NCBI GenBank assembly: GCA_030062745.1
Contig: CP099840.1
Location: 31,871,006-31,935,005, forward strand
Direction: 5' to 3'
DNA: 64,000 nucleotides
Source: Capitulum mitella
Taxonomy: Eukaryota; Arthropoda; Thecostraca; Pollicipedomorpha; Pollicipedidae
A program made the position numbers and the translations under genes. The notes beneath the pieces are model-generated. The model saw nothing but the letters and a program-made list of their open reading frames with translations, did not search any database and was not told where the DNA came from. Positions 3,001-61,733 of the stretch are shown here, in pieces. Position 1 is the stretch's first letter. Each line of letters begins with the position of its first letter.

Positions 3001-4114
3001 GGGCGGCCAGGCTGTGTTGAGCTCGCGCACGCGAAATTACTCGTTCGACTTGACAAACCTTTGGACTGTGGCACAATGCGGAAATATGCCATATGGATGC
3101 ACGGGCGAGCCGTTTATGACGATCTGTTATGCCAAAGCGAAAGGCCATGCAGGACTTGGTGTCCGTGCAGAGCCATTGTTTGGACGGATGTGTTTGAAAT
3201 GAAAAGAACGTACATCAGGCATACCATGTTTGGATGTTTTTCATCGGAGGGCATTGGCCTAAATAAAAGAAGCGACTCGAAACTCGGTCCAGCGCCAGTA
3301 ATTTCCAGAAATCTTCGCCCGTGTCGTGCCATGATGTCTTGTCACCAAGGAGTGTGAACCCCTCACTCCCGATATGGCAGGGTGTCGCCTCCGTCGTATG
3401 CACGCGGCACGGCGGGGTCAATGGACCCGACTCCGGTCAGGCCGCTGACTGGCGGCTGCTCGATCTCCCCGATCCATTTCTTACGGCGGTGTACAGGGCG
3501 CTGATCGGATTCACGCGCGGCGCCGCGCTGACCTCAGCGGCGGCGTGCAGCCGTACAGGGCGACCCGCTGTCGCAGTCGCTTGCATCCGGTCAACGACCG
3601 CTGCAGGTGTGCCGGCGCCCCTGTGGGTCAGCCGGCGCCCCTGCAGGTCTGCCGGCGCCGCCTCTGCCGACATCGTCGCCGCGTCGAGACCGACGCGGGC
3701 CCGGGCCGGCCGGGTCAACGACTGGTCCGGCGGCCGCGCTCGCGAGCCGCCGCTGCCGGCGCCAAGAGGAGCCGCCCCTCGCGCCGCTTCCGCGAGCGAC
3801 CGCGCCGCCTGTTTACTTCCGCCGCGCGGCACCCCTTGTTTTCGCCGCGCCAGCCGGGCACGCGGAAGCGCGTGTGTCACTGACCCTGAGAGGAAGAGCT
3901 ACGCCGGCCGCCGCGCTGACGTCACCGTGACGCGGCCGCTGCGTCACGCTGGCGGGCGGCCAGCGGCGCGGCCGTCGCCGCCTGGGAACACGCCGAACCG
4001 GCGGCCGGCCGGGGTTCTCGAGTCCGCCGCCGGGACGCCGGACGCGGTCAATATTCGGACCGGGCGGCGGTCGGCCGGCGCCCGCCGACCCGCGCCGCTG
4101 CCGCCGCCGCCGCC

Positions 4115-32490: not shown

Positions 32491-34690
32491 TGGTGAACTG
32501 GGAAAGGGCCGGGCCGAGGCGACACGATTAAACCTCATCAGGCACTTGACAGTACTGACCATGGTGAGGTCTTTGGACTTCTCATCAAACTCCAGCCGTT
32601 TGAAACAACATGGCATGTCCAGCGTCGTACATTTGTCGCCGTCGGCAAGCGTGGCGAACACACTCTGCAGATTTGGAAGGAAGTACTGATCCACCTCGAG
32701 CTCAGGGTTCACTGTCGATTTAAAACGCCCGCACAATCGAACCGTGCCGTCTTCCTTTGGTACGCACACACCTGGTGTGTGGTGGTGAGTCCTAACCACT
32801 ATAGGTACTTAACGGTCTCTAAAACTCCGGATTCCTGCAGCTTGTCCAGAGCGACCTCAGCCTTTGGGTACGGACATACAATGGGCGCTTGGGAACAACG
32901 TTTTCCTTGAGGTCTAAAGAACATTGATCCCTCTTATGCAGCCCAAATCACTCCCAAATTCCTGATTCTTTCCAAGCACTTCTCCTAGGTTCTTCGGAGA
33001 CGACAACTCATGGAGTTGAAAGATCTCCTTGCGGTCCAGCCATATTCCTCACGGGCCCAGTCAGCTCCGGCTTATAAATGTCGGCCCACAGCCCTCCAGC
33101 ACCGTCAGGGTGTGCGTCCCGACTCGGCCCTGATACAGGACTTCAACATCCACGGTTCCTAGCACCAGCAAGCAGTCTCCAGTCTACGTCTCGAGCTGTT
33201 TGCCACACGGTTTGAGCTCAGCCGTGATCCCCAACCTTTTCCACTGTCCTCACTGGCAACCGAGGCACTTGCAACAGTGTCGTGCTATGCGGACCTCTAT
33301 GTGGACCATCTTTCCCGCAATCTTCACAGCCGCGCAGAGGCGGCTTCTTCCCGTCCTGGCCACTTACCAGATCTACGCTATGTACATCCTGTCTGGCCCC
33401 CTCGCCTGAATTTTGCATCGGAACAGCCCCATACAGACACCGGACGTCACCGAGACGAGCCTCGCCTGAACCGCCAGCGCACGCCTCGGCCACGAAATTA
33501 CACGGACAGGCTCGACACATGCGACGGATTTGCCCATGCTTGTGGCAGACAAAACAAACGGCGGTACAGACTCGCCGTCCTGAGGACAATGCTCGCCGTC
33601 GCAACGCCAGCACTGGCCCCGGCGAGCCTGCCCGAACGCAGCTACCCGATGACCACGATCAGCTGATCTGCCGAACCCAGCTCGGCTCGCTACGTCTGGG
33701 CCCACAGCTGCCTGAGGACGGCCATCGCCTGATTCGACGAACCCAGGTCGGTTCTTTGCGCGTAGACCACCATGGCCAGGCCGCGAATGACCGAACGGCT
33801 CACGGCGGAAGATTCTCCCCCAGGCGACAGCTGCGATTGTCTGAAGGGGTGCTGATACGAGATCACCGCCATGGTTGACAACGCCGACACGGTGACTGGG
33901 TTCGGTGCGCCCCTACAGCGCCCGACTTTCCGTGGACGCCGTGTCAGCCGCCAAAGCCAGTAAATGAGCGTTTTCCCATGTTAGGCCATCGCCATCGCGG
34001 AGCAGTCGGCGCTGGATACGACTGCTGGCCAGGCCACAGACGAGACGGTCGCGGAGCTGCTCGTGCAAAACTTTAAACTTGCACAGTCGGGAGAGTCTTT
34101 GTAGCTCAGCAATGTACTCACGGATTGTCTGGCCGCCCTTTTGCGTACATGAATGGAAACGGATCCGAGCAACGATCACCAATGTGCGCGGCGCGAAATG
34201 ACCTTGAGCGAGGGAAGCTATGTCGGCCAACACCTTATCGCCCGGCTCCCAGCTTGTCCAGCCTTCAGCCTTCAGAATTATCTTGAAGGTCACGGCACGC
34301 GCCTCACTCAGGAACGTGCAGGTTTCTAAGCCATCGCTGATGCTCCTCGCTTGTGCAAAATGTTCAGACAGTTCCACATACTCTTGGACATCGTCCTCCT
34401 CTGGGTAAAATGCTCCGAGGCTCGCCTTACCCGCCATCTGGGCTCACGATAGGCAATCTCCGTTCAGTCTCATCACCGGGCCAAATCGGGCCCCTGTTCG
34501 GGCGCCACAATATTGTGTCGCCGGCCTCGCTGCGCACCAAAACGCCTGCTCTCAACGAAAGTGTATTCTTAAATAACGCAACGATCACACACAAGTATGT
34601 CAAGGGCTGTACGGCGGCGTACAAGCTGACTGAAGTTGTACGCCGTACGCAATTGCAATACACAGTCGACCCCTGCTGTCCTAGGTGACC
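32490..34690 (-). mobile_element. Ty3/gypsy LTR retrotransposon fossil, partial
   Basis: Read on the minus strand from 34690 down, the parts are: a piece of the 5' LTR (about 34510-34690), a tRNA-Lys-type primer binding site (about 34495-34510), gag (33913-34437), a zinc-knuckle region (about 33480-33560), and the first part of reverse transcriptase (32500-32799). The rest of pol and the 3' LTR are absent. It is broken, with several breaks, and looks moderately old. It interrupts the degenerate minisatellite. Confidence 0.8.
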
Positions 34691-43537: not shown

Positions 43538-43624
43538 ATGGGAAGCAATGTTTCAAAGAAGAGGAGGAAGTCATCATTAACCGATTCTGAAGCACGGTCA
43601 AAGACACAGATGAAAATTCTCATG
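43538..43624 (+). CDS. LRSAM1: LRSAM1 exon 1: N-terminus
   Basis: Reads MGSNVSKKRRKSSL then TDSEARSK, donor ATG|GTAAGT. Human LRSAM1 has a comparable basic start (RKRKPSEEARK). Met-Gly at the start with Ser at position 6 and a following KKRRK run fits an N-myristoylation site plus polybasic stretch. Confidence 0.85.
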
Positions 43625-46600
43625 GTAAGTCAATTTCTTTTGAATGAATTTGTGAACATAATGAATTGGCTGTTTTTGTTATTTTAGGTTCAGGAATTAC
43701 AGTATATTCCTGTGTTTTTTTCTACCAAATGATTCAATGGAGAAATATTGGTTTGAGCTTGTGGGCAAAACATGATTTCTCCTTCATCGAAACTTTTGAA
43801 TCATTCTTTCAGCTGCAGGGAAAACAAATTTCATACACTTCCTTTGATTCTCAGGCTGAAGAGACACCAGAGCCCATCTACGACCTTTCGGAATGTTTGT
43901 TGCGACATGTGCCTTGTGGAACATATGCGAAATGCAAGGTCATGAGAAAGTTGCAGCTCCTGCTACAGGCAAGTGTTATATCTGGGCTTCCAAAGCATTT
44001 ATAGTTTTCAGCTCTGCAACTGTTCTTACAAAAGTCGGAAAATACCTTCATGTATTATGAGGCCAAAGTATTACCTAATCTAACAGTTCTCTTGTGTGTT
44101 GTACAGAAGTATCTTGAACTTATGATTTTTTAATGGAACACTGATGTTCTGTTTGCCATTTTTGCTATCTTGTCATTTTCCTGAAGAGGTTTGCAATAAA
44201 TCTTGTTCTTGAATCAATGGAATGGCATTGGAATGCTGAGTGTCCCCCAAAAACATGTTTGACAAAGGTACATGCGTAAACCCATTACTCGGCTTTGTAA
44301 CTTGTAAGCATGCTGTTTAAGTGATTAGAATGACATATACATAACTTTGCCACTTGACTTTGTACTGCAAGCTTTTATTGAAAAGTGATGTTGCCCAAAA
44401 TAAGTATATGATTGTTTTTTAATTGGTTCAGGTGGCTTGATAAGGTCGTGTTAGGATCGGATCCCATGCCAAGCAGAGCTTGTTGCATAAATTCCGACCC
44501 TGCAGTCGATCACGCAATGTCTGGCAATGGCCGAGTTTGTGGAGAAAGCTTAGTGTGCTACTAAGAGTGCGACACAATCACATCAGTTTGTCAGCCTGGC
44601 TCTGTGTTGGCCAGTTGCTGGCTGACCTGCAGGCCAGATATAGAGTATTGGGGCAATTCGAGCCCACTTTTTCAGGACAAGACCAGTGCTCTCCCAACTG
44701 GGCTACCGATTATGGTAGCCCAGTTGGTTACCTCATGGCTCAGCATATGAGGCAACTAGTCCCACAATGGAAAACAAGATTAAACAAATGCATGGTTAAT
44801 GTCGGAAAACTACATTGGAGCATCACTTGTTGTTTGGGATTAGTTAATGCAGTTTGGTTGTGATTTTACAATAATCCCTTTCATGGATGGCATATGTAAT
44901 TGCACAGTTTGTACATCACATTGCATTGTTGTCACTTTTGCAACCTTTTGTTGCAGGCTGTTCTATGGCTTTCATACTTATTTCTGTAGATATTTAGTTG
45001 GTTTAATTACTACCAGTGTAATAGCTTTGTATACTGGTAAAGTTAGATATGTCTTTGATTGAGCTTCTTTTGCCATTTATCAGAAGTTGTCAGATAGAAA
45101 AAATGCTGAAATACTGAAATGCTACTATGCTCAGTAGTCATTAGAAAATTGCCCTGTTTTTGTTTATTTTTTAAGTATGTAATATTTGTTATTTACAGGA
45201 ATGGATTGCAAGGTTGGTGTTTCTGCTGTGATAATGCTAGTGGAATGAAATATTTGTCTTATGGGAGATAGTCACGTCAACTATTGCATCAGTTTAGTTG
45301 GAGTATTATTTTGTTTTCGTTATATATGTATTACGTCACCTTGCATGTTTGGTATAGTGGTGTAGCTGTTTATGCCATCACCCCAGAACCTGACAACTTT
45401 TAATGGGGTTAATACTTGGTATGCTGTATTGTTAGGTACTGTTGTTAAACTCGTTAGCCCGCCCCGACTGAGGGTACGGTTGACCGGCCCCCCCCCCTCT
45501 GAGGTTTTTCTAGGACTGCGAGAGAACGAACAAACGCAGCTCCACGGAACGTCGCGTACCTTTTACTTGATCATTTTTACACATTGTTTCAAAGTTTTGA
45601 CCTCAGGTCAAGTCAAGTGTCTGCCCTAGGTCAGGTCGAAGGGACCAAGGCCCAAAAATGTTTAACATCCTGTAACTTTTTTTGGAAAACAAGATATCAC
45701 TATAAAACTTTCAGGGATTGGAGATCTTCATAGACGCAACAAATCTGCTACTTCAGATTGTTCGGAATTTTCTTGGTCATGGACCTAATGTGAAGTTCAT
45801 TTTTAAGACATGTCGTATTTTTTTCGGAGATTGGCGGAATTTTCCGTAGCATTTTTAGTGTGGAGTGATGCAGACACCTAGTTACCGTCATTGGGCAAAA
45901 TATCAATGACTTCCAGCCATTGGCTTGAGGTCAGGTCACGAATAACTGTAGAGAGCCGAAATGTACCACCGTCAAAATCGGCGATGAATTACTCAGAATG
46001 GGTAGAATATGGCAGAACCGGCTTGCACAGACGCATGAATACCAGAAACCTCGAAAAGTTCAAAAAATTGCTTATTTTGGAACTAAACAGGCTCTCGCGA
46101 ATAAAGCTCCGCCAGTTGTGTAGTTTGGTGACTTATGAATTTTTCCATGATTTAAGCATGAGAAACCATCACAAGAACCACTAAGATCAATAAAATTTAC
46201 ATGGACCCGCTTATGTTGCGAAAGTAAAGGAACGCTAAAATTAGTTCCCGTTAATTTCTTAATGCGTACTGCTGCGCCGCCCGCCGACAACCGACGTGAA
46301 TTTTGCCGTGTCTATCTCAACGTTTTGGCATATATATATTAAACAAATCTGAAAACGTAGACGTGTATCCGCATCTGCGGACCTTTACCTGTGCGTTGGT
46401 GCCCTTACCTATACGTTATTAGTCACAGCCTTTGAGATTCAGGCCGTTTCTCGGTCTCATGCAGTCGGCTATGAGAAAACATATATAGGACGTAAATTGC
46501 TTACATATTATCTAAACCTAAAAATGAGACCAGTTTCGAACTCTACTCGTCACAAGCTTTCCAACGGTGTGCTTATTTTTATTGTGCGACCAACCGTTCG

Positions 46601-49600
46601 CGAGTTAGAAGGGGGGCGGCCAACTGCCCCCCCCCCCAGTCGGGCATGATCGTAACCGAGCGACGGTCGTGCGCGGGTTAATACTGACAGTGACTGTTGA
46701 AATTTCCTGGGCGTGACGCTTTAAATACCAAGTGTTGCAGGTACGCTATTTTTTAATGAGAACAGCGTCAGTTACATAAAATACAAGATTCTTCTGTACA
46801 TAAAATACCTTATTGCGTCGACGGGCTGGGGCTAGGAAACCCTCCATAAAGTAAGCGGAAGGCTGAGGAATGAGGTAAAGCGCATAGGGACAGAGAAAAC
46901 AGTCCATCATCGTAGGGCGTAAATGGCTTGCATATTATCCAAAACCCAAAATGTGACCAGTTTCGAGCTCTGCTTCTCAAGAGCTTTCCAACTGTGTGCG
47001 TTTTTCATTGTGCGACCAACCGCTCGTGAGTTAGAGGGGGCGGTCAGCGCCTCCCCCCGCCCATTCGGGCGTGATCGCAGTCTACCCACTGTCGGGCGCG
47101 GGTTAAATATGCATGTGTTTTAGGATATCTGTTATCTAGATAACTGCTATGCGGAGTTTGTCACAAAATCATCATGGCCCATATTTTTTTGTTGGAAAGT
47201 GCACCTACTGGAAATTGAATAAATTTTCATATGTCAGATATTAATATTTCCGAAAAATACATACAGCTTGTAATCATGTGTTTATTCTGTGCTGTAATGC
47301 CACCAGCTGCCATTGATTGTACATTGTTGTTGCATGCAGGACAACCTTCTCACTTCTCTGGAGGAAGGTGGCCAGATGTCCGATCTTCACCTGCTCCAGG
47401 TGCTCAGGCTGGACTTCAACTGCTTCAGCCACATTCCATCCAGTATCTCCGCCCTCACCAGCTTACAGGTGTGCAGGAATGTGAACAGTCAGATTCTGCA
47501 GTCTCTGGCACTGGTGTGCGCTTGTTTTTCGCTTGCCATCATCTGGCTGTTCTCTTGTCGGAGTCCGACGGTTGCACGTTGCGTTCGCCGCAGGTACTCA
47601 ACATATCCAACAACACGATAAAGCACCTGCCCGAGTCTGTCGGCGAGCTACGACAGCTGCGACAGCTCCTCTGCCGCTGCAACGGTCTGCGCGCGCTGCC
47701 GAGCTCGGTGGGCTGCCTGCCGAGGCTCAGGACGCTGGACGTGCGGAACAACCAGCTGACCGAGCTGCCGCCTCTGGAGAATATCAGGTGGTGACTCCCC
47801 CCCCCCCGACTGGGCCCAGTTAGTCGCTGTTGTCATAGAAATGCACCCATGTGTTAGATATTTGGAAATTGTTCCTTGTTGTCGGTCAGTTACTGTGTAC
47901 TGTCTGCTGAGACTGCGAGCTGGTGTCTACACAGCGGGTAAGGTTAGGTTGAGTGCCACTAAATTGCATGCAGTGATGTTTTTTTTTTAATCCGGCACTT
48001 GCGGGGATGTGTCGCAGACATGTGCCGGGATCCAGATGGAATGCAGGTTATCCTCGTTTTGCGTCGGATTCTAAACTGAACAGGGCAAGTATTGCGTCAC
48101 CTCGGCACGGTTTCCTCCTGATGAGCACGACCTTCCCGAGATGACGCAGTGACCTGCCCAGGTCAACGACAGGTTGCGTACAACACGGGGACAACCTGCA
48201 TTCCATCGGGATCTAGGCTGCTGTTTGGTGCGTCACCACCTTACTGCCATGCAGTAAATCCTCAACCAGTGGACTGATTTGGCTGACTAAAACGGTAATC
48301 GACCTTCTCCATGTCCTGTTGTGACGTCGGGACGTCTCATTTTTGCGTTTGAAATTGTATGTCGGGTCACAGATGAAGTTCAAGGTTAATGCCGTTATTC
48401 GACTGATTCGGAGGACACCGAGGTTGGAAAAGATGGTGTTTTTTGTGTTGAAGAACACCAGAAAACGTGCTCCAAAAACATTTTACCCTCAAAAGAATGA
48501 TCTTGGGCCTCCATCAGAAAGCTACACTATAATAATCCTGGCAAATTTCTAACTGGAAGCAAATGACTGTCTCCATTCATTAGGACGCAGGTATGATGTT
48601 ATAACTGACTTACACCAGGAATGACAACATGAACCAGTATAACTGTTTGCAAAATTTTGCACTCCAAAACAGAAATTACACTCTGACACCAAGAACAGAA
48701 ACCCAATTTCCAGCCCTGAAGGACTCTGTTGTTGTAACGTGCAATTCGGAAATTAGATACATTATGATGTTGAAATACGTTTCAAGCTTTGAATAATAAA
48801 CCAATTAGTACAAATCTGTTGGGGGAAAATGATTCACTGGTAAGGTTCGAGACATGGGATACTAAAAGTCAAGTATACATTAGATTTAAATGCGCCTAGT
48901 ATGTTGCATAAAATTCGGGGGACCCTGTAAATCTGCTTAAAAGGCCTATAAGTACCGTCTTTGGAATGAAGAATCCGCAGGAGGTCGTCACAACGGATTT
49001 TATGACGTAAATCGATGTATGTGAGAAATAACGGCTGCTTGAATTTGACCTCTGATGACCTTGTGTAGGGTTGTATGTGGTCTTCATTGGCCTGTGATGA
49101 CAGTGTAACTCATCGTGTAGCTGGTCGGCCATTTCATAGCACCATTTTGTCTGTGGAAGTTACGTAAACGAGAAAGGGAAAAATTGTAAACACCGTGACC
49201 GTTGAGACATTATTCTGACGTGACCTTGGATGAATTTGACAGTTTTCATTAAAATGTGCACGAATGATCAATCGAATTTTCCATAAACTTTGGCGACACT
49301 GCGCTGTTTGATAGCAGAGTTATCCGGTAAACAATATAAGTGGGGCATCTAACACCTCTCCCCCCTCAGCAAGTCGCGGATTAAACACTGCGTGTAGCCA
49401 TGTATGGAATGAGACGAAATTGCCTGTATGCTGCCCGGCTGTGCAAAAACCGATAATGGTTTCAGGTTGCTTGTAATAGTAATATATTGTGTTTATGATG
49501 TATGATAATGTTTGATAGTGGTTTTGATTGTCACTGTTCGAGTTGTAATAATTCATGTGTCGTAGGATTTTTACGATAATTTTTCACGTTCCCTCGGAGT

Positions 49601-52600
49601 ACCTTCTCATGCTGCTCACCTGAGCAGGGTCGTCATATATGGTCATCACCAGTGTTTTTCCGTCGCTGTGTGGAGACGCGGTGCTGGGACTGAGAGCGGT
49701 TGGTGACGGACCCTGTCGGCCGACAGCCGTCTGGAGACGCTCAGGCTGGAGGAGAACGAGCCGCTGACGGCGCCGCCTGCCGACGTCATCGGCCAGGGCT
49801 CGGACGCCGTCATCGCCTACCTCTGCCAGGGTGAGCCCGCTCGCTGGCGGGGTGTACCGCAGGCCGCGCCGGTCGTCAGGCAGGCGCAGTGACGACCCCC
49901 CGGCCCGCCGATCGCTGTCCCGGACTGGGGACGGGGCCTACTTGGCGTCGTCTGTAGCGTCAGGAAAACAGCAACGGCTGCAGTAAGACGGAATTACGAT
50001 GCTTCCTTTTTCTACTGATTTTGAAAACATTGCGAGTGTTTGCCGACGACGGTGATGATGGGGCCCACACGTTGTATGTGGTGGCTGCACGCTTGCCCGA
50101 AACGCATCCATAAACCTGGGGAGATCAGACATTGTGCCCTGACGCTCTGCTGCTGCTGCGCGCAGAGGCCGGCGCGAAGTACACGGGACCGTCTGATGGT
50201 GACGACACGGACGCTGCGGTTCCGGCGACGACGATGTCCGTCCCCGACGAGCTGGACAACGTTCAGGTGAGACCAGACGGCCTCGGCTCGCCGGCCGGAC
50301 TCGTCAGCCTGAGCTTGAGAACGGCAGGGAACAGGCAGCGCTGGCTGGCCCTGGGACGTGCGCGGAGCTGTGGACGCTCAGTTCGATATCGTCGAGTGGG
50401 ATTAAAAATACGGGCTTGATGCATGGATTGCAACAGCTCTTTGAACTACGTTTGGAACTACTGGCTTGACATTGAACAACAACAACAAAATCTAATGATG
50501 CGTGTCTCAAAAAGCTTGCTTTTTTAAAGTGTAGCTGTTTTTTTTTTTGTTCTAGGTTGAAAACCATGGTTGGCATTGTTTCGAAACACTTACCATTTCG
50601 TTCTTCCGTGTAGGTTCTGAAGTGAGTGGATACCTGTGGTGTCGTGCAACTTTTGATTTTTTCTTTGTTGTTGGGGTTTCGTGATGACGAGAAGAGCAAT
50701 CGTTCCTGCTGCTTCGTCCATGTCTTCATTGGGCGGAAGACGCCATCGCTTTTTTGCCGTCGTATAACTCAACGGAACGGCAAAGTGTCGTAAAATTTCA
50801 TTGCCCTGAGGTTCACCAGTTCTGCACATTTTAGATAAAGAAGGTCGTCGGGGTGTCCAGGGTCGTTCCAAGTGGCGTATTTAAGACGATATTGTATAGG
50901 TTTGTTGTTTTCGAAGTGTGCTTTGTGTTCATCGATGCACTGAACTTTCGAAATAGCCGATAGTTAACAGTATCTGTGGTAGGGGTCACGAAAGATCAGT
51001 GTAGACCACACGTAATCTGACACGGTAGTTTTTTCGTTTTTCATATATACGAATATTGCCGATTTGCAATAGAAAACATATAGCAATCGTTTGAAGACAT
51101 CGATGATGGGGTGGATACATGAGTAGAGTTTTGTATTCTTATTTTTTGGAAATTTAGCCCTAACGTGTTGAAGTTGATGGCATTGGGATCAGAGCCAAGT
51201 TAAGCCGAGCTTGTTGCTGGGCCCTGGCCCCGCTACTTAAGTGCTACCAAATATGGAGCAATTTCGCACCAGGCGCCGAGACAGTGGCGCTGGAGGATCT
51301 CTGTCGTGCCGTGCTACTCCACGACACGGCCGCCCCGTGCCTGATTGACCCTTTTGGTCTCGGACCAAATGCAGTCGCCCGTTCTGGGTCTCGAACCCAG
51401 TGCCTGCCACGCACTGGACTCTGTTGTCCGGCTCCTTATCCATCAGGCCACGGCGACGACTTCTAAGGACGAGGTCTAATGAGTCCATGGCGTTTATTGA
51501 GTTTTACACGTCACATGTTGCATACTTCAACGCGAAAACTAGCACGTATCTGACCTCTAAGAATCGCATGTACTAGCGTGAATCGTGTCACCATTTCTCT
51601 CAGATAGACGTATGTTGATATCTCATACGTGCCCTCAGACATATTTGGGCTTTAGGATAACTGTAATTTCCAGCTTGCAGGCAAAAACGGCATTGCGAAA
51701 TAGCCCAAATGGAGACTTTTGCTGTGGCTTGCGATGTAATCGTGAGGTCTAGGAATGTGGTGTGCCCTGCATCATGTCGTTGAGGGCAGCCGATTATCGT
51801 TCGCTTCAGCCGAATCGGCCCCTGTCTTGCGACGTTATTGTGTGGGAGGACATGAAGCCCCTTCCGCGGTCAGTCAGAGGTAGCGGCATACCCCAGAAGG
51901 TGGTGAAATTGCGTCGAAAATTCGCCGAGATGCACAATTCAGCGCACAATTACAAATCTTTGCTTTTCTTGCAGGAAAAGATTCAACGATATGACATGCT
52001 GAAGGTGAGGAAAATACTTCGAACACCAAACAACAAACTGCGTGCAAAATTGCGAGTAATTCAAGTCACCTGGCGTCGGTCTCAAACTGTGATGCAAAAT
52101 GGTCTCAACCGTGATTATGACTTTCTTCTTCTAAACAGTTTCAGCTTTTTAAAGCTCCGCACGCTGTAATGGGTTTGACGCGCGTACTGTGAGTGTTGCG
52201 GCATGTCGACGTGCTGCATGATGCGCTGCTGTTTGTTTGGCATGGCCTGGGCCGCCTCCCGCGCCCCGCTGCCAGCCGTTCTCTAACCACTAACATGTGG
52301 CACGTGCCGACCGGTCGCAGGAGAGCCGGCGGCTGGAGTTGCTGGAGCTGGAGAGGAGGATGACTGAGGCCAAGTCGCAGGAGGGTCTCGAGGTCAGCAA
52401 GCAGGAGGAATTCAGGAAGCAGGTGGGTGAGGAAGCTCGGTCCCGGCGGGCAGTTCAGGAGTCAGGTGGGTGGGGCCGCTCGGTCCCGGCGGACAGTTCA
52501 GGAGTCAGGTGGGTGGGGCCGCTCGGTCTCGGCGGACAGTTCAGGAGTCAGGTGAGTGGGGCCGCTCGGTCCCGGCGGGTGGCCACGTGGTGCCGGTGGA

Positions 52601-55600
52601 GGCTGATGGTCGGCGGCCGAGCTGAGGGGAAGTGCGGATCACCGATCATCGCCGGAACACGGCATACCATTAAAACGCTCCTGTTAAATAGAAACTCACG
52701 GAAAACATGTAGACATTTGAATAATCAAACACCTACCCTATTGAACTTTTGACTTATGCATGTGGATTCCTATATCTGCAGTGCTATGGTCATTGGGCTG
52801 AACTTGATAAAACAAGGCGTTCTGCCTGGTTACATTGCTGACGGCCATTACCCGAAAAGACTGTCATTACCCGACCAGACGACAGCTCAGATTTTGATCT
52901 CGGGCGCGCCTAGCGGGACTGGGTTCAGGTTTCAGGCACGACTCCGATTCCATGCGCTAATCCCTGTTTCCAAGTACCCGGTGCAGGCGTCACGTGACGC
53001 GATTTTTGTGTGTTACCGGACGTGCTAGTGAGAGTGTGCAGCGAGGAGGGGGGGGGGGGGGCAGCAGTCTGTACTAGAGTCCGATTTCACGGACGTTACT
53101 ACGGTCTTCTGAATGAATACTGCTTGCCGCCGGGAACTGAACGGCTGTGTGCGTATTAATCGAAGCCGATTGCGTGGGAATGAAGCATGACAGAAGTGCA
53201 GACGGGGTAAACTTTGTTTGCGCCACGTGTTCACGTGTATGTCGTCGAAGTCGGTGCGCCCCTAAACCCCAATAATCAGTCAGTGATTATGTGAAGTTAA
53301 CAGTGAGATACCGTTTTTACTGTGGGTGGCCGTGCATGTTTCTGAGTAACCGTGCTGTTACGCCTCGTGATCTCCGCTTATCTTCGCTGGCTGCACCCAT
53401 CTCTCACGAAGTTCGAAACCTCCTCTTCCAGCAGACCGACTCACCGGGCCGTCTGCACTCACGCCGTCTCAGGGCCACCCAGGACGGCCGTAGTCCCGTT
53501 AGCATTGCTGTTCACGAGTCCGCTCGTAACCGTGCGTTATCCGTGCGACCGCCGGCGACCATTGTCCACCGTCCGCCGCGCGAGTCGGTCCACACAGCTG
53601 TGGAGCGAGCTGGCCCACCACTCCTGGCGTACTGTGGGCGCATGCGTAGCCGTATGCAGTCAGTGGACGCAGACTGTGCGTGGTCGTGCGGTCCCAGCAT
53701 GGTGCCTGCCTGTCCCTGTTCTCGCCCGTTACCCCGTCAGCTGGCTGTGCTGTGTCCTTTCGGTTCCAGCTGTGGCTGGGCCTCTCCGTCCCCCCCCCCA
53801 CACACCAGACCTGATCTCCGTCGACCGCTGGACGAGCTGGCCGAGTGTCAGGCGCGGCTGGACCCTCCTGACCTGTCCTGATCTCCGCCAGCTGCTGGAC
53901 GAGCTGGCCGAGTGTCAGGCGCGGCTGGACCCTCCTGACCTGTCCTGATCTCCGCCAGCTGCTGGACGAGCTGGCTGAGGGTCAGGCGCGGCTGGATGCG
54001 GACGTGGCGCGGGTGGCCGAGCAGCGCGAGCGCGACCACCGCCGGCTGCTGGACTCCGTGGCGCGGCTGGAGCAGGAGGCGGACGAGGCGGCAGCCCAGG
54101 TGGCCGCCGCCGCCGCCCGTCTCCGGGACCCGGCCGCCGTGCTGGCGCGGCTGCAGCTGGACCGGCGCGAGCTGGAGCAGCTGGTGGTGGTCCGCCAGGA
54201 GGAGTGCGACGCGCTCCGGCAGCACGAGGTAAGTCTGCGGCCGGCCGGACGGCCCGCTCAGTGGCGCTCTGGTGGGCAGGGGTTTTATGACAGCTGATCT
54301 GGAGATGGCTGGCGTCAGGTAATAGGTAGTTTAGGCATTGCGGCTTTTAGACATGGTGAAGGGATATGAGATTGCCACTGGATAGTTAGACCCTGTTTAT
54401 GTGTTGGCTCGTGCACGAATAAGAAACGTCAATGAAATGCAAGGCTGATGCACGCAGGGACCAACATACACGATGGCTTGTCCATTGTGCATGGTGTGAT
54501 ATAGCGGTCGGTCGTGTTGATCTGATCAGTTCTGTATCTGAGTGGTACTGATGTGGGTGGATTCCACACGATTTGTGACAGGTCCGACTGTGTGACGGCG
54601 CCGTGATGTCCGTTGGCTGGTTGTCTGCAGGTGATGGAGTCGATGAAGCAGCTGATGAAGGAGTCGTGCGCCATGGAGAGTCAGCTGATGGAGTACCAGC
54701 GGGGCCGGGACCGCGCCCTGCAGGAAGCTCTCTCGCAGTGAGTTGCCGTCAGAACGCTGGACGGCAGGCTGGCTAACGTGAAGGCTATTCATTTTCGGTG
54801 CCACGAAGTGCGATAAACAGTCATAGTGCGCCCAGTGGTTCTGTTTGTGTACGTTTGTCTACATGGCACTGTTTGTGTGGCGTTCCTTTTATGCATTGTG
54901 GACGTGTTGACCTGATTTGTGTTTCGCCACCATTTTCGTGCTTTCAGGGATCAGCAGATGGACGCCCAGCTGAAGCAGCTGTTGGAAATGAAGGGATCCG
55001 AGCAGGAAGCGCGCATTCAGCAGCTCATCAAGGACGAGGCGTTCCAGCGGCAGGCATTCTTCAACCTCTACCTGCAGCAGGTCTGTTGCCTCGACGCTCT
55101 GGCGTTGTCATCGGCTGCTACGAAGCGCAAGATGAACGAAATTGCACCCTATTTGTTGGTAACGAACAGCTTACTTACCCAAGGAGATTGCAGTGTACCG
55201 TTGGCCGTGACCGTTTGGTCTGGTCCGCCGTCCGTGTGGCGTGGTCTGCCCTGTGGAGCGGCGAGACGGAGTCCATGAGGCTGGTGATGGTCGGCTGACG
55301 CGACCGGTCCGGCCGCCAGGACGCCAGTCGGCTGCAGATCCTGCACCAGATCTCGGAGGCCGAGGAAGCCCTGATGCGGCTGACGATGGTGGAGGCCGAA
55401 CACAGGGAGGACAGCAAGGACTCGGAGATGGTCAGTCGGATGCTGGAGTGCCGCGTCAGGGCGGGGGGATTGTTCGGCGTGATAGGTGAAAAGCCCGGCT
55501 GCTGGCTGTGGCGGTCAGCAGTGGGCCGCCCCTGGTTTTGTTTCCGATAGCATAACTGGACTCGGCCAGTCATTTGTTACTGCCTCATCCCATTCTACCC

Positions 55601-58600
55601 CGTTTGTTGATGAAGTAGGCCAGTTAACTTGGCGGCTGTGTCCCATCGGCTCTTTGTCGTGATTTCTGTATTTTTGAAGGCTTGTTTTTCCAAATCTGAG
55701 GTTATGTGGGTATCCTCTGTGAGTTCATAGTAGAACCATCCGTGATGCTGAGTCCACGGTAGTTTTATTCTTGTTACCGTATTCGGTGGTATCTCGGCCT
55801 CTCTTGTGACACCCATGGTCCCGGATAAAGACCTCATTGTCCGCATGTAGGACATGTGCTGTTGTGTCACGTGTTCGCTGTCTCAGCCTGTGACCGTTCC
55901 CCACTGTGTATCGGCCTCTGACCGTTCCCCACTGTGTATCGGCCTGTGACCGTTCCCCACTGTGTATCGGCCTCTGACCGTTCCCCACTGTGTATCGGCC
56001 TCTGACCGTTCCCCACTGTGTATCGGCCTGTGACCGTTCCCCACTGTGTATCGGCCTGTGACCGTTCCCCGCTGTGTATCGGCCTGTGACCGTTCCCCAC
56101 TGTGTATCGGCCTGTGACCGTTCCCCACTGTGTATCGGCCTGTGACCGTTCCCCATTGTGTATCGGCCTGTGACCGTTCCCCACTGTGCATCGGCCTCTG
56201 ACCGTTCCCCACTGTGTGTCGGCCTGTGACCGTTCCCCACTGTGTATCGGCCTGTGACCGTTCCCCACTGTGTATCGGCCTCTGACCGTTCCTCACTGTG
56301 TATCGGCCTGTGACCGTTCCCCACTGTGTATCGGCCTGTGACCGTTCCCCACTGTGTATCGGCCTGTGGCCGTTCCCCACTGTGTATCGGCCTCTGACCG
56401 TTCCCGGCCGCGTTTGGGCGGCAGGCCCGTCTGTCGGAGAAGCGGCGCCACCTGACGGCGCTGCTGGTGCAGCTGATGGAGCAGCAGGCGGCCAGGGAGC
56501 GGGAGCTGCAGCGCCGGCTGGTCGAGATGGACGAGCAGCGCCGCGGCGAGGTTCAGCACTACTGGCTGGTCCAGGTACGGCCCGAGCTGTCGGACGGCCG
56601 CTGTCGGCCGCCGCGGCCTGGCTCCGGCCGGTGTCGGACGGCCGCCGTCTGCCTGTCGGCGGCCTGTAGGGAGGCTATGGACCGTTGCCGTCCCAGTGTC
56701 GGACGGCCACCAGTGATGACGTCCCGGGGCCGCTCCGGCTCCAGCGTCGGGCCGACACTGGCAAAGTCCTGCAGGGCTTTGTATTAGCTACGTGTTGACT
56801 GCTCGAGATCTGGTCCTGGAATTGTCGGAACGTTCCGTTTTTGGCAACAGTCTGCGAGCTTCCATTCGGCATGCAAGAATGTCTTGTAATCGGTGTTTGG
56901 TAGCCTTTTTGAAACGCCTATATGTCAGTAAGAAATCCTTTAAAACTGCGAAAAAATGACAGATGTAAAGATCTACAACACGTAACCATATGCCGGGATG
57001 TGAAGTGCAAATGAACTGCAATAGGACGTTACTGCGCAACTGGCGTCAGGTTGTGTGGCTTAGTTCACAACAGTGTTGACCTTTTTAGACGCATGTGTTT
57101 GGTGAGCTGTCTACTGGCCTTAGCATTTGGCACCTGTGTTCTCATCCTGTTTGCCGCTTAATCTGCTGTTCTCTTTCTGTCTCTCCCTTCCCCGCTAGTC
57201 AGGGAAGCAGGACGTGCGATACTATTGGTTGATCCAGGTAGGCTGTGTGTCTTCCTTCGCCCCTTCGCGAAGAGGGGCCACTGCCGCCAACAGACGTGCT
57301 TTCACTGAATCATTGTCCTGGTATCCACGGCACTTAGTTGCTTGACTTGATACCTGAGTCAAGGTCTGGCATGGCCTGACGGGCTGTAGGGACTTTAGAT
57401 TAATGTGTACGGTCGCTGGAAATCTTACCTAGACCGTTTTTCATACATGCAGCATGGTTCTCACTCATTCCAGTGTAGCGTGGCATGATGCTGCATTTAG
57501 GTGGTACAGTAGACGTTGCATGCATTGTTATTATGCTGAAATTCAAGAATTGAATTGGAGGAGAAACATTATTTGCCTCGGGGCATTCGTAATGATCATG
57601 TTGCCTTTATTTTCCAGTATCAGCGACTGCTGGACAGCAAGCCAGAACGGGTGAGGTAAGTTGTAGAGATCATCTGTGTCTATCTTTCTCTCGGTCGTAT
57701 CGCGTAGAACGTTGTAATGCTACGTCCCGGATTCGCTGCATTCGGAGATCTGTATCAGTTGGAGTGTTTCTTGGGATCAGTCTTCGCACCGTCGGGCTCA
57801 CTCCATCGGAGTCGTGATGAGTTTCTTCACTTAGGCATTGTTCATTTCATTGCTGCGACCGGTGTGGCGCTATCATGATCATTTTTATCGCAGACATGTG
57901 CTGACTTAATTATCTTCCAAAGAGATCCAACAGACAGCTGATGTGTTTACTAGGATTTACTTACTATTATTACTAGGACGAGTAACTGAAGCCTGACAAG
58001 GCGCAAGATCCCAGACGCCTTAGCCCAAGAGCCTGTGCGTCCAAATTCACAAAAAAGCAAGAAAATGAACGATGCTTCTTTTTCCCTCTAAAGACAATCC
58101 GTCGATTGTGGGCAATGTCTGGCAGTCGCTTCAACAATCTTGGGAATACCGCGGATACCGAGGGGCGGGTCTGATTGCAGACGTCAATAAGGGCGGTTTC
58201 GTGATTCGATGAGCTGCTGTTCCGCCGGGTGGCTGTTGGCTCAGCTGCCGCGGGTCCGCAGGGAGCTGGAGGAGACGCTGGACGCCAGGGTGAAGACGCT
58301 GCTTCAGAGCTCCGGCGCCGAGGACTACCTGACCCTGTTCGCAGCCGGCAACGTCCAGTACAAGACGCTGCTCTATATGAACGACGCCGATCTGCTGGAG
58401 GTGCTTCTTGACGGACGGGGAAGGGGTGCTGCGTATTGGGGTCTGCACCTGACACGGAGGAGAGGGGCACGACTGGCGACTGACGGGGGGGGGGGCGCGG
58501 CTGGCGACTAACTAGAGGGGGGACATGACAGGCAACTGACCATGGAGGGGCACGTCTGATGACTGACCGTGGAGGGGGTGCGGCTGACGACTGAAGGTGG

Positions 58601-60312
58601 AGGGGGGGGGGAGGCACGGTTTGTGACTGACCGGGTGGTTTGGCAGTCGCGGACGACATTGGTCGACCAAACTGGAACCACAATGGGTTAAAGTGCTGAC
58701 ATTCATTGGATTCCAGGACGCACTAGGTTTTACCATGACGCATGTTTATTGTTCTGAATTGTTTGTTGCAAGTCCGCGATTAAAAATATTGTAATTTCTT
58801 GTATGATGTTTATTTATTTATTTATTTATTTATTTATTCACTGGAGCTCAGGCGACGGTTCCAGTTGGCCTCTTGGTTTGTCTCGGGCTTCTCTGAAGGT
58901 TTGCAGCGACTGTTATAACCCCAGTGTTTCGTCTTTTCCGCTCTTGAAGTGCCCCTTATACTTAGACTTTATGGGGCGAAATTTCCGATGTATGAATCCA
59001 GACGCGCCAGGGCTGCCGTCTCTCGGCGCTGAGCCGTGCCGCTGCCTCCTCAGCTGGGGGTGAGCGACCTCTCCAGCCGGGCGGCGATCCTGCGTCAGAC
59101 GGCGTTCGTGCGGGACCAGGACGAGGACAGCCTGAAGCCGCGCCGGCCGTCGGCGCCGCCGGCCTCCGACCCGGCCGCGCCGCCGTCCGCGCCGCCCGCC
59201 GCCGACATGCCCGCCGACCTCGAGGTATGGCCTCTGGACAGGCAGATTTGTGGAGAGCGCGCCCGGTTAGAGGTCTCCTGAGTGCAGCTTCTGCAACTTC
59301 CTCTTCGCGGGCTGCGGCTTGCGCCTACGCGTCCTTGGCTGATGTATCCTGTGGAGCTAAATGAATGGAGCCTCCCATAGTTGACGCGTCATGCAGCCAT
59401 TTGCTGAACACCGGCGTGATGCTGATGGGCGGACGCGTTTGGTCTGGCTGGCTGGTGGTGGGTAGGGGACAGGTCTATATGATGGATGGAAGCGATGCCC
59501 AGAATGTCTCGTTTTCTCTGCAGGTCCTGTCTTTGTGGGCAGAGTCTGTAGTTTGTTTTGTATCCGCCTATCGTTTGAGTGTGGCTGGTGTGGCGTTGCC
59601 GCATTTTGAGATGACTGTCTGAATGAATGCCTCCTCCAGCTCGCGGTTCCTGGTTGGGTTGTTCCTCGGTTCCTCGGCTGGGTGGTGGGTGGTTTGTGGA
59701 TGAATGCTGTTTATGGAAGTGGCTCCCTGGCCATCATGTGTCTCCCTCGGGACGTGGTGTTTCCTGTTGGTAGTGTACAGCTGGTATCCGGCGGTCCGAT
59801 GTGATGCTGCTGTGTGTGTGTCAGTGGTGGCTAACCGTGACTCGTCTGCTCCAGGGTGCGGCCGCAGCGCCGGCCGAGACTGGCCAGTACCGGACCACGC
59901 ACACCGAACTGGAGTGTGTCGTCTGCATGGACCACAAGGTACGCCAGACACTCGTGGGCCGGCCGGTGGGCCTCGACGATTTGGAAACTTTTTTGGCGTT
60001 TTTGTGGAGCGTTTGTCATCAGATAACAGCAGGAGCTGTCAGAATCCATTGCATTTCTTGCTGACCCTTGACTGGCCGCTCTGTGTCACCCTGCTGACCT
60101 GTGACCGGCTCCCGTGAGCCACCCTGCTGACCTATGACCTGACTGCTACGCTGCCGCGTCTGACGGTCGGCTGTGGTCCGTTTCAGACGGAGGTGATCTT
60201 CCTGAACTGCGGCCACCTGTGCGTGTGTCGGCAGTGCTCGGGCCCACTCAGCCAGTGCCCGATGTGTCGCCAGTCCGTGCTGCAGAAGCTGATCATCACC
60301 TCCGTGCTCTGA
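43538..60312 (+). CDS. LRSAM1: E3 ubiquitin-protein ligase LRSAM1, 19 coding exons
   Basis: Exons: 43538-43624, 43855-43968, 47340-47468, 47594-47787, 49727-49830, 50166-50266, 51975-52004, 52321-52422, 53959-54228, 54631-54737, 54948-55080, 55320-55430, 56425-56574, 57199-57237, 57618-57655, 58262-58400, 59054-59224, 59855-59938, 60187-60312. All join in phase: 2229 nt, about 742 residues (human LRSAM1 is 723). Order: N-terminal KKRRK segment, leucine-rich repeats (about 60-205), long coiled coil (about 245-545), SAM (about 570-630), two PSAP motifs (about 648 and 660), RING (C695-C728). LRSAM1 is a cytosolic ligase that ubiquitylates TSG101 through PSAP/PTAP motifs and labels intracellular bacteria for autophagy. 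Intron 2 carries a MITE; several other introns carry minisatellites abutting the splice sites. Confidence 0.93.
43855..43968 (+). CDS. LRSAM1: LRSAM1 exon 2: start of LRR region
   Basis: Reads AEETPEPIYDLSECLL and then CGTYAKCKVMRK, matching human DILDISKCELSEIP and FATCKVLQKK. The donor is CAG|GCAAGT, a GC-AG intron. The match continues directly to DNLLTSL in exon 3 across a 3.4-kb intron. Confidence 0.88.
44455..44740 (-). mobile_element. tRNA-derived SINE in LRSAM1 intron 2
   Basis: On the minus strand, TAGCCCAGTTGGGAGAGC is a good polymerase III A box and GGGCTCGAATTGC a B-box relative, followed by an unrelated body. The 3' tail (GCAACAAGCTCTGCTT, 44472-44488) is shared with the SINE-like element at 51181. 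A perfect 14-bp inverted repeat of the A-box region lies at 44694-44727. Confidence 0.55.
45458..46677. mobile_element. 1.2-kb TTAA-flanked MITE, copy 3, in LRSAM1 intron 2
   Basis: Homologous to copies 1 and 2. The right flank is TTAA (46678-46681); the left site reads TTAG (45454-45457). The last 310 bases and the following spacer are nearly identical to copy 1, while the first part is more diverged. The host intron is much longer than its neighbours because of this and other insertions. Confidence 0.75.
46914..47102. mobile_element. 1.2-kb MITE, copy 4, right end only
   Basis: About 190 bases homologous to the right end of the family (TTGTGCGACCAACCG, then CCCATTCGGGCGTGATCG and GGCGCGGG), ending at TTAA (47103-47106). 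The rest of the element is missing. Confidence 0.65.
47340..47787 (+). CDS. LRSAM1: LRSAM1 exons 3-4: leucine-rich repeats
   Basis: Exon 3 (47340-47468) begins DNLLTSLEEGG and has LLQVLRLDFNCFSHIPSSI. Exon 4 (47594-47787) has VLNISNNTIKHLPESVGEL, LLCRCNGLRALPSSVGCL and LRTLDVRNNQLTELPPL. These follow the LxxLxLxxNxLxxLPxx pattern, aligning with the human LRRs. Junctions are GT-AG, phases 0 and 2. Confidence 0.93.
48027..48213. mobile_element. Inverted-repeat element in LRSAM1 intron 4
   Basis: Arms of about 38 bases, 48027-48067 and 48175-48213, share GATGGAATGCAGGTT in opposite orientation. The unit could fold into a long hairpin. It is probably a small MITE; no target duplication is clear. 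Confidence 0.5.
49727..50266 (+). CDS. LRSAM1: LRSAM1 exons 5-6: last LRR and linker
   Basis: Exon 5 (49727-49830) reads RLETLRLEENEP and then VIGQGSDAVIAYLCQ, comparable to human AAILQFLCKE after the LRRs. Exon 6 (50166-50266) encodes a variable acidic linker (SDGDDTDAAVPATT, ending PDELDNVQ). Splice sites CGACAG/GTGAGC and GCGCAG/GTGAGA, phases 1 and 0. Confidence 0.85.
51181..51464 (-). mobile_element. tRNA-derived SINE-like element in LRSAM1 intron 6
   Basis: On the minus strand from 51464 there is an 84-base class II tRNA-like head with A box TGGCCTGATGG, B box GGTTCGAGACC and a perfect 5-bp T stem. The anticodon stem is imperfect and one acceptor pair is lost. About 190 bases of unrelated body follow, ending in GCAACAAGCTCGGCTT, the tail shared with 44455-44740. 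Confidence 0.55.
51975..52422 (+). CDS. LRSAM1: LRSAM1 exons 7-8: start of coiled coil
   Basis: Exon 7 (51975-52004) is a 30-nt microexon reading EKIQRYDMLK, between TTCTTGCAG and GTGAGG. Exon 8 (52321-52422) reads ESRRLELLELERRMTEAK and then QEEFRKQ, a charged heptad-rich coiled coil as in human LRSAM1 (EKRKEQKMLEKLEFERR). The exon 8 donor CAG|GTGGGT is the first of four tandem copies. Confidence 0.82.
52423..52594 (+). repeat. 43-bp tandem repeat at LRSAM1 exon 8 donor
   Basis: Four units start at 52423, 52466, 52509 and 52552. Each begins with a splice-donor sequence right after CAG: GTGGGTGAGG, GTGGGTGGGG, GTGGGTGGGG, GTGAGTGGGG. The last is the best match to a consensus donor. The frame from exon 8 stays open through the array, and 52552 is back in phase 0. 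Confidence 0.9.
53810..54008 (+). repeat. 67-bp tandem triplication at LRSAM1 exon 9 acceptor
   Basis: Units start at 53810, 53877 and 53944. Each holds branch-like CTGAC, a pyrimidine tract, CTGATCTCCGCCAG (mutated in unit 1) and the exon start CTGCTGGACGAGCTGGC. Only unit 3's acceptor (exon start 53959) gives an open frame from phase 0. Confidence 0.9.
53959..54228 (+). CDS. LRSAM1: LRSAM1 exon 9: coiled coil
   Basis: 90 codons reading LLDELAEGQARLDADVARV to EECDALRQHE, ending at donor GAG|GTAAGT. Heptad-patterned Leu/Ala with many Arg/Glu fits the coiled coil of human LRSAM1. It is strongly biased to GC-rich codons. The start is chosen as the only duplicate acceptor that reads through in phase 0. 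Confidence 0.85.
54631..55430 (+). CDS. LRSAM1: LRSAM1 exons 10-12: coiled coil
   Basis: Exon 10 (54631-54737) reads VMESMKQLMKESCAMESQL. Exon 11 (54948-55080) reads QMDAQLKQLLEMKGSEQEAR and ends FFNLYLQQ. Exon 12 (55320-55430) reads DASRLQILHQISEAEEALMR and ends REDSKDSEM. They align with human AMQQMLTESCKNRL, QMDQNKAISQILQE and the following helix. Phases 2, 0, 0. Confidence 0.88.
55889..56405. repeat. 28-bp minisatellite in LRSAM1 intron 12
   Basis: About 18 tandem copies of a 28-bp unit starting TGTGACCGTTCCCC and ending TATCGGCC, varying mainly at TGTG/TCTG. It ends 20 bases before exon 13. The minus strand is open in all three frames only because the unit lacks stops and 28 is not a multiple of three. 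Confidence 0.95.
56425..56574 (+). CDS. LRSAM1: LRSAM1 exon 13: end of coiled coil
   Basis: 50 codons: ARLSEKRRHLTALLVQLMEQ, a basic/acidic helix, and the final EVQHYWLVQ before donor CAG|GTACGG. Human LRSAM1 has ALSSLLQQLLKEK and then QENYWLIQ at the same place. Confidence 0.9.
57199..57237 (+). CDS. LRSAM1: LRSAM1 exon 14: 39-nt cassette-like exon
   Basis: Reads SGKQDVRYYWLIQ between CCCCGCTAG and GTAGGC, phase 0 at both ends, so it can be kept or skipped without frame change. Its last five residues repeat the YWLVQ that ends exon 13, as if it were a duplicated version of that exon end. Human LRSAM1 has this motif once. Whether it is constitutive, alternative or silent cannot be told here. 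Confidence 0.6.
57618..58400 (+). CDS. LRSAM1: LRSAM1 exons 15-16: SAM domain
   Basis: Exon 15 (57618-57655) reads YQRLLDSKPERV, equal to human YQRLLNQKP. Exon 16 (58262-58400) reads ELEETLDARVKTLLQ and then EDYLTLFAAGNV, LLYMNDADLLE, a SAM domain. The junction could also be GAACGG|GTGAGG with acceptor at 58245 (adds LPRVR in place of V); I chose the pair with the stronger donor GTGAG|GTAAGT. Confidence 0.82.
58401..58640 (+). repeat. Degenerate G-rich repeat after LRSAM1 exon 16
   Basis: About five loose units of roughly 30-40 bases with GGAGGGGG, GGCACG and GACTGAC motifs start just after the exon 16 donor. They vary in length and sequence. Confidence 0.5.
58802..58841. repeat. (TTTA)n microsatellite
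   Basis: Eight or so TTTA units in LRSAM1 intron 16. Confidence 0.9.
59054..59224 (+). CDS. LRSAM1: LRSAM1 exon 17: end of SAM and PSAP motifs
   Basis: Begins LGVSDLSSRAAILRQT, completing the SAM domain (human KVGVSEAGLQHEIL). A Pro-rich tail has two PSAP motifs (RRPSAPPAS and APPSAPPAA). P(S/T)AP binds the UEV domain of TSG101; human LRSAM1 also has a PTAP and a PSAP here. Acceptor CCTCAG, donor GAG|GTATGG, phase 0. Confidence 0.9.
59855..60312 (+). CDS. LRSAM1: LRSAM1 exons 18-19: RING finger and stop
   Basis: Exon 18 (59855-59938) ends ELECVVCMDHK. Exon 19 (60187-60312) reads TEVIFLNCGHLCVC, QCSGPLSQCPMCRQ and ends KLIITSVL with TGA at 60310. The full C3HC4 set is present (C695, C698, C709, H711, C715, C718, C725, C728). 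This RING recruits the ubiquitin-conjugating enzyme and is the catalytic module. Confidence 0.95.
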
Positions 60313-61384: not shown

Positions 61385-61733
61385 CCGCCGCTGGGCCTGT
61401 CTCGGGGTACGGCAGTCCGCCGCTGGGCCTGTCTCGGGGTACGGCAGCCCGCCGCTGGGCCTGTCTCGGGGTACGGCAGCCCGCCGCTGGGCCTGTCTCG
61501 GGGTACGGCAGTCCGCCGCTGGGCCTGTCTCGGGGTACGGCAGTCCGCCGCTGGGCCTGTCTCGGGGTACGGCAGCCCGCCGCTGGGCCTGTCTCGGGGT
61601 ACGGCAGCCCGCCGCTGGGCCTGTCTCGGGGTACGGCAGTCCGCCGCTGGGCCTGTCTCGGGGCACGGCAGCCCGCCGCTGGGCCTGTCTCGGGGTACGG
61701 CAGTCCGCCGCTGGGACTGTCTCGGGGTGGGCG
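61385..61733. repeat. 32-bp minisatellite
   Basis: Eleven copies of a 32-bp unit (core GCTGGGCCTGTCTCGGGG) with the only common variation GCAGTCC/GCAGCCC. Both strands are open through it, explaining a 340-codon frame at 61225-62247 that matches no family. Confidence 0.95.

What the first reader, a model, noticed from the sequence alone, without database searches (positions are those of the whole stretch)
52321..52594. Splice donor of LRSAM1 exon 8 is amplified in a 43-bp tandem repeat that encodes an in-frame 43-residue extension
Four 43-bp units begin at 52423, 52466, 52509 and 52552, each with CAG|GTGGGT or CAG|GTGAGT. The true donor by homology is the first. The fourth is the closest to consensus, and 3 x 43 = 129 nt = 43 codons, open throughout (VGEEARSRRAV ... 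GGQFRSQ). So the cell could make a protein with a 43-residue insert in the coiled coil by choosing the last donor. A minisatellite that copies a splice site and restores frame every third unit is an unusual route to isoform change.
Basis: partly seen in the sequence, partly recalled or inferred. Interest (0 to 1): 0.75.

Follow-up and report, generated by a model that had tools for sequence, protein, structure and literature searches.

The report
Barnacle intron with copied splice sites
In a barnacle gene for the ubiquitin ligase LRSAM1, short tandem repeats have copied the splice signals at both ends of one intron, which could yield longer proteins or dead-end RNAs; no RNA evidence was available to show that it does.

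Summary
The repeat is real. A 43-bp, 3.9-copy array (52411-52578) straddles the exon 8/intron 8 boundary of a 19-exon barnacle LRSAM1 gene, giving four CAG|GT donors. Donor 1 is the orthologous junction: the three barnacle proteins retrieved (two species) lack an insert there. Donor 4 is closer to consensus and in frame (+43 codons). The open frame is weak evidence: 79% of shuffles are open, and it stays open 66 codons past donor 4.

Acceptor copies 2 and 3 are identical over 82 nt, each with an upstream CTGAC branch-point-like motif; copy 1 has lost its AG. Of 8 donor-acceptor pairings, 3 give a full-length protein (742, 785, 793 aa) and 5 truncate it.

Controls are sober: duplicated splice sites (2 of 36) are no commoner than for random positions in the gene (6.1%). 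Most likely these are minisatellite passengers: the outermost pair makes the normal protein and inner pairs minor or unproductive isoforms. Splicing itself is untested; six requests to the own-genome tool were unanswered.

The parts
43538..60312 (+). LRSAM1 gene, start codon to stop codon, 19-exon model (742 aa including exon 14)
   Evidence: exon 2 start corrected from 43813 to 43855.
52321..52422 (+). Exon 8 (34 codons, phase 0) ending at donor 1
   Evidence: junction conserved in P0001, P0002 and P0039.
52411..52578 (+). 43-bp array, 3.9 copies, straddling the exon 8 donor
52423..52551 (+). In-frame 43-codon extension if donor 4 is used
   Evidence: use not shown.
52423..52428 (+). Donor 1 GTGGGT, the ancestral site
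52466..52471 (+). Donor 2 GTGGGT
52509..52514 (+). Donor 3 GTGGGT
52552..52557 (+). Donor 4 GTGAGT, strongest of the four
53810..53996 (+). 67-bp array, 2.8 copies, straddling the exon 9 acceptor
53820..53826 (+). Acceptor copy 1, AG lost by four transitions within 6 nt
53868..53891 (+). Acceptor copy 2: CTGAC to CAG, intact
53935..53958 (+). Acceptor copy 3: CTGAC to CAG, the conserved exon 9 acceptor
53959..54228 (+). Exon 9 (90 codons, phase 0)

Best explanation
Intron 8 of a barnacle LRSAM1 gene is flanked by two separate short tandem duplications. One (43 bp) repeated the exon 8 tail with its 5' splice site three more times downstream. The other (67 bp) repeated the 3' splice site (pyrimidine tract, AG and exon 9 start, with a branch-point-like CTGAC before copies 2 and 3) upstream. 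The outermost pair (donor 1, acceptor copy 3) is the ancestral one and makes the conserved protein, presumably because only these sites abut the full exons (exon definition). The inner copies lie inside the intron and are tolerated as passengers that cause some splicing noise: +43 aa (donor 4, acceptor 3), +51 aa (donor 3, acceptor 2), and truncated, probably nonsense-decayed products from the other five pairings. SHOWN: arrays, copies, frames, conserved junction. INFERRED: independent origin by slippage or unequal exchange, dominance of the outer pair, low output of inner pairs.
For: Arrays and unit borders; the two units share no sequence family in the repeat listing. Unit 1 keeps the lysine codon of the conserved junction (FRKQ here, FKKQ in the other barnacle proteins) while units 2-4 share a derived AGT. 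3 of 3 barnacle proteins retrieved, from two species, lack an insert. 3 of 8 pairings give full length. The insert is unlike the helical stretch it would interrupt: 9 Gly and 2 Pro in 43 residues, mean helix penalty 0.64 against 0.36 (exon 8) and 0.35 (exon 9), on a scale recalled from memory. Passenger status fits the controls: 2 of 36 splice sites lie in duplicated sequence (at least 28 of 40 nt) against 6.1% of 3000 random positions in the gene; at least 2 of 5 arrays straddle a junction in 46% of random placements.
Against: Local sequence does not favour the outer pair: donors 2 and 3 equal donor 1, donor 4 scores higher, and acceptors 2 and 3 are identical over 82 nt. In classical competition experiments (recalled) the sites nearest the intron centre often win, which would favour donor 4 with acceptor 2, a pairing that truncates the protein at 348 aa. 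Random placement gives an intron with its two ends in two different arrays in only 4% (post hoc). Four transitions within 6 nt on copy 1's AG (about 6e-5 under uniform placement, post hoc) could mean that selection acted on the array.
Confidence: 0.6

Rival explanations
1. One reading: donor 4 is used to a substantial extent with acceptor 3, so the animal makes a 785-aa LRSAM1 with a 43-residue insert, alongside or instead of the 742-aa form.
For: Donor 4 is the strongest donor in the intron by U1 pairing and by the gene's own matrix, lies nearest the intron centre, and is in frame.
Against: No RNA; no insert in the 3 barnacle proteins retrieved, none from this species. The insert is glycine-rich and helix-unfriendly. 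The open frame is close to expected by chance. It also needs acceptor 3 over the identical acceptor 2.
Confidence: 0.18
2. Poison splicing: inner pairings, above all those with acceptor copy 2, are used often; 5 of 8 pairings truncate the protein, so the arrays lower or regulate LRSAM1 output through nonsense-mediated decay.
For: Acceptor 2 is identical to acceptor 3 over 82 nt and lies upstream; donor 1/acceptor 2 stops at 53946, far upstream of the last exon.
Against: No RNA; loss of much LRSAM1 output would be expected to be selected against, yet the frame of all 19 exons is intact. Copy 1's AG is gone, which could mean that such acceptors are harmful.
Confidence: 0.12
3. Assembly artefact: one or both arrays are misassembled, expanded or a mix of haplotypes.
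For: No reads could be inspected, and the own-genome tool did not complete. Short arrays are a known source of assembly error (recalled).
Against: Units differ by substitutions in patterns particular to each unit (34-42 of 43 and 4 or 13 differences in 67), and both arrays are under 190 bp, short enough for single reads to cross.
Confidence: 0.06
4. Dual-specific or recursive use: the CAG|GT sites of the 43-bp units act as 3' as well as 5' sites, so the array is removed in steps.
For: AG|GT once per unit, as in the tandem-repeat genes of PMC10809524.
Against: Pyrimidine fraction before these AGs is 0.2-0.4 against 0.5-0.9 for the gene's 18 acceptors; steps of 43 nt are probably too short for an intron (recalled).
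Confidence: 0.04

Closest known systems
Potato RdRp gene: intron gain by tandem duplication across an intron-exon boundary (PMC4974935; abstract and section 5 read)
   Same: A tandem copy carries the branch site, pyrimidine tract, AG and the start of the next exon, much as the 67-bp copies do; copies differ by substitutions.
   Different: In potato a new intron is spliced (106 RNA-seq reads in the paper) from a recruited exonic GT. Here the donor side is duplicated too, no extra intron is evident, and there is no RNA evidence.
Dual-specific splice sites in tandem-repeat genes such as human UBC (PMC10809524; abstract and sections 7 and 9 read)
   Same: AG|GT repeated head-to-tail at fixed spacing within a gene.
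   Different: UBC units are 228 nt, in frame, coding, and used as 5' and 3' sites. These are 43 nt, frame-shifting, intronic beyond unit 1's exon tail if donor 1 is used, and poor as 3' sites.
Drosophila novel intron positions by tandem duplication of proto-splice sites (PMC2891723; abstract and passages read)
   Same: Small regional duplications that contain splice sites change intron boundaries, with NMD proposed as a backup.
   Different: There duplicated exonic sequence becomes an intron; here splice sites at both ends of an existing intron are multiplied.
LRSAM1 (E3 ubiquitin ligase with LRR, coiled coil, SAM and RING; the coiled coil is recalled, not tested)
   Same: LRR and RING matches and 65% identity to an A. 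amphitrite LRSAM1-like protein over the full query.
   Different: Splice-site arrays at intron 8, and an extra 39-nt exon 14 that is absent from the two A. amphitrite proteins.

Membership tests
LRSAM1 orthologue | Leucine-rich repeats near the N-terminus | tested here: met
   LRR_4, E 4e-10, 40 bits against cut-off 27, on the exon 4 stretch.
LRSAM1 orthologue | SAM domain | tested here: inconclusive
   SAM_1 19.5 bits against cut-off 23 on the exon 16 stretch alone; the region aligns without a gap to P0001, which carries PF00536.
LRSAM1 orthologue | C-terminal RING | tested here: met
   zf-C3HC4_3, 40.9 bits against cut-off 27.
LRSAM1 orthologue | Full-length similarity to named LRSAM1 proteins | tested here: met
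   65% identity, 100% of the query, E 4.4e-292 to P0001.
Tandem duplication across an exon-intron boundary (potato RdRp type) | Head-to-tail copies that include exonic and intronic sequence with the splice site | tested here: met
   Both ends of intron 8.
Tandem duplication across an exon-intron boundary (potato RdRp type) | The duplication alters the spliced product | not testable with these tools
   Needs RNA of this species; none is held.
Dual-specific splice-site arrays (UBC type) | AG|GT once per unit | tested here: met
   Four CAG|GT, one per 43-bp unit.
Dual-specific splice-site arrays (UBC type) | Sites competent as 3' splice sites as well | tested here: not met
   Pyrimidine fraction 0.2-0.4 against 0.5-0.9 for the gene's 18 acceptors; a crude proxy only.
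Dual-specific splice-site arrays (UBC type) | Unit length a multiple of three | tested here: not met
   43 nt.

The most novel reading that the evidence does not exclude
Intron 8 is a two-ended, frame-gated splice-site array. Donors add 0, 1, 2, 0 and acceptors 1 or 0 (modulo 3), so 3 of 8 pairings give full-length proteins (742, 785, 793 aa) and 5 are truncated. Fast changes of repeat number at either end would then tune both the set of isoforms and the amount of LRSAM1, and the loss of copy 1's AG would be a trace of selection on that array.
Probability: 0.12. Interest if true: 0.75.

Novelty: new member of a known kind. Interest (0 to 1): 0.4.

Why it matters
Acceptors 2 and 3 are identical over 82 nt and donors 1 to 3 are identical over their 9-nt consensus, yet one pairing alone makes the conserved protein. 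The intron is thus a natural test of whether exon context rather than site strength decides splice-site choice, and of how minisatellites move intron boundaries or add residues to a protein.

Tried and rejected
Openness of the 129-nt extension as evidence of coding: rejected (0.79 of 5000 dinucleotide shuffles open; frame open 66 codons beyond donor 4).

RNA folding of the donor array as a regulator: 52380-52620 folds worse than most of its shuffles (z +1.81; 195 of 200 shuffles fold at least as well), so no structural signal was seen.

A donor-amplifying repeat elsewhere: the 20-bp array at 3601-3659 looked donor-like in its consensus, but its three copies differ at that point, and I made no gene model there; dropped.

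Enrichment of arrays at splice sites: no excess. The one figure that leans the other way is the 4% for one intron with its ends in two different arrays (post hoc).

Own-genome search for further copies or a second haplotype: not answered. Protein search with words from the region around the insert: 3 hits among 7996 candidates scored, none with the insert. Paper searches: 7 answered. Apart from three opened papers I saw listings only; no listed title or abstract start described both ends of one intron in tandem arrays, which is no proof of absence.

The first gene model began exon 2 at 43813; the alignment with A. amphitrite moved it to 43855, used. The queries and the alignment still had the 14 extra residues; the query did not.

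Full report
What was checked. Tandem Repeats Finder reports a 43-bp array at 52411-52578 (3.9 copies, 92% matches, 0% indels, score 280). The sequence and a script confirm four CAG|GT sites 43 nt apart, with GT at 52423, 52466, 52509 and 52552; the first three read CAG|GTGGGT and the fourth CAG|GTGAGT. The coordinates of the finding are right.

The gene. Joining exons by eye, with GT-AG borders (one GC-AG) and homology as guides, gave a 19-exon model (exon 2 start corrected). Pfam finds LRR and RING above the curated cut-off and SAM below it on single-exon stretches. A protein search puts two Amphibalanus amphitrite LRSAM1 proteins first, P0001 at 65% identity over the whole query. A second search, with an alignment, added a partial Pollicipes pollicipes LRSAM1-like protein, P0039. 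By local alignment the model is 65% and 62% identical to the A. amphitrite proteins and 55% to P0039. I infer a barnacle that is neither species. The own-genome tool gave six busy replies.

Which donor is ancestral. The exon 8-9 junction reads EEFRKQ|LLDELAEGQARLD here, EEFKKQ|LLGELVEEQARLD in both A. amphitrite proteins and EEFKKQ|LLDELVEEQARLD in Pollicipes: 3 of 3 barnacle proteins, from two species, have no insert. A third search, with words drawn from residues 240-430 of the donor-4 isoform, returned these same three. Unit 1 keeps the lysine codon of the conserved junction; units 2-4 share a derived AGT there.

The acceptor of the same intron lies in a 67-bp array, 53810-53996. Each copy has the end of the intron and 38 nt of exon 9; the tails of copies 1 and 2 hold a CTGAC branch-point-like motif, so acceptors 2 and 3 each have one 24 nt upstream, while copy 1 does not. 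Acceptors 2 and 3 are identical for 65 nt upstream and 17 nt downstream of the junction. Copy 1 differs from copy 2 at four positions, all transitions within 6 nt, and the AG is gone. Under uniform placement four changes fall within 6 nt with probability 0.0007 and also touch the AG with about 6e-5. Both figures are post hoc, and one multinucleotide event would explain the cluster.

Frames. With four donors and two live acceptors, 3 of 8 pairings keep the normal C-terminus: donor 1/acceptor 3 (742 aa), donor 4/acceptor 3 (785 aa), donor 3/acceptor 2 (793 aa). The other 5 end at 305-406 aa. Donor 1/acceptor 2 meets its stop at 53946. These lengths include exon 14.

Strength. By U1 pairing donors 1-3 score -10.9 and donor 4 -11.7 kcal/mol; by a matrix from the gene's other 17 donors, 9.49 and 11.77; no other GT between 52300 and 53957 reaches donor 1's score. 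Acceptors 2 and 3 cannot be told apart by local sequence. So local sequence does not single out the conserved pair, and what does (exon definition, in my reading) is inferred.

Controls. Of 18 donors and 18 acceptors, one and one have a tandem match of at least 28 of 40 nt within 400 nt, against 6.1% of 3000 random positions in the gene, that is about 2 expected of 36. An array of 168 nt contains a junction in 27-30% of placements. The five arrays of the gene with period of at least 20 and score of at least 80 straddle two or more junctions in 46% of random placements; one intron has its donor and acceptor in two different arrays in 4% (post hoc). The open frame is unremarkable (0.79 of shuffles; 386 of 1143 GC-rich intronic windows; open 66 codons past donor 4). 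The insert is glycine-rich and helix-unfriendly on a recalled scale. RNA of the donor array does not fold better than shuffles.

Verdict. The most economical reading is two minisatellite-like duplications that are tolerated because the new sites lie inside the intron. It is a clean natural test of choice between identical splice sites, yet a member of a known kind: boundary-crossing tandem duplication in potato RdRp, AG|GT arrays in UBC, proto-splice-site duplication in Drosophila. Use of donor 4, and of the other inner sites, remains possible and untested.

Noticed in passing
57199-57237: A 39-nt exon (exon 14, SGKQDVRYYWLIQ) with good splice sites resembles the end of exon 13 (QRRGEVQHYWLVQ; 20 of 39 nt, the best of 88 CAG|GT-ended 39-mers on the + strand) and is absent from both A. 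amphitrite proteins; possibly a partial exon duplication.
   Followed up: partly
55879-56424: A 28-bp, 18.8-copy array in intron 12 ends 19 nt before exon 13; its last unit holds the nearest CTGAC branch-point-like motif (56394), so this 3' splice site may borrow its branch point from a minisatellite.
   Followed up: partly
43969-43970: Intron 2 of the model starts with GC (CAG|GCAAGT), a GC-AG intron.
   Followed up: no
33913-34443 (- strand): An ORF with a weak match to Retrotrans_gag (E 0.00034, 21.2 bits, below the cut-off of 24.1); perhaps a retrotransposon remnant.
   Followed up: partly
61385-61728: A 32-bp, 10.8-copy array (97% matches) downstream of the gene that is open in all three forward frames.
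   Followed up: no
P0039 (Pollicipes pollicipes, database protein): The deposited LRSAM1-like protein has GRTWRASPNS after QARLD, which looks like exon 9 read in another frame, and then lacks most of that exon; perhaps a gene-model or assembly error.
   Followed up: no
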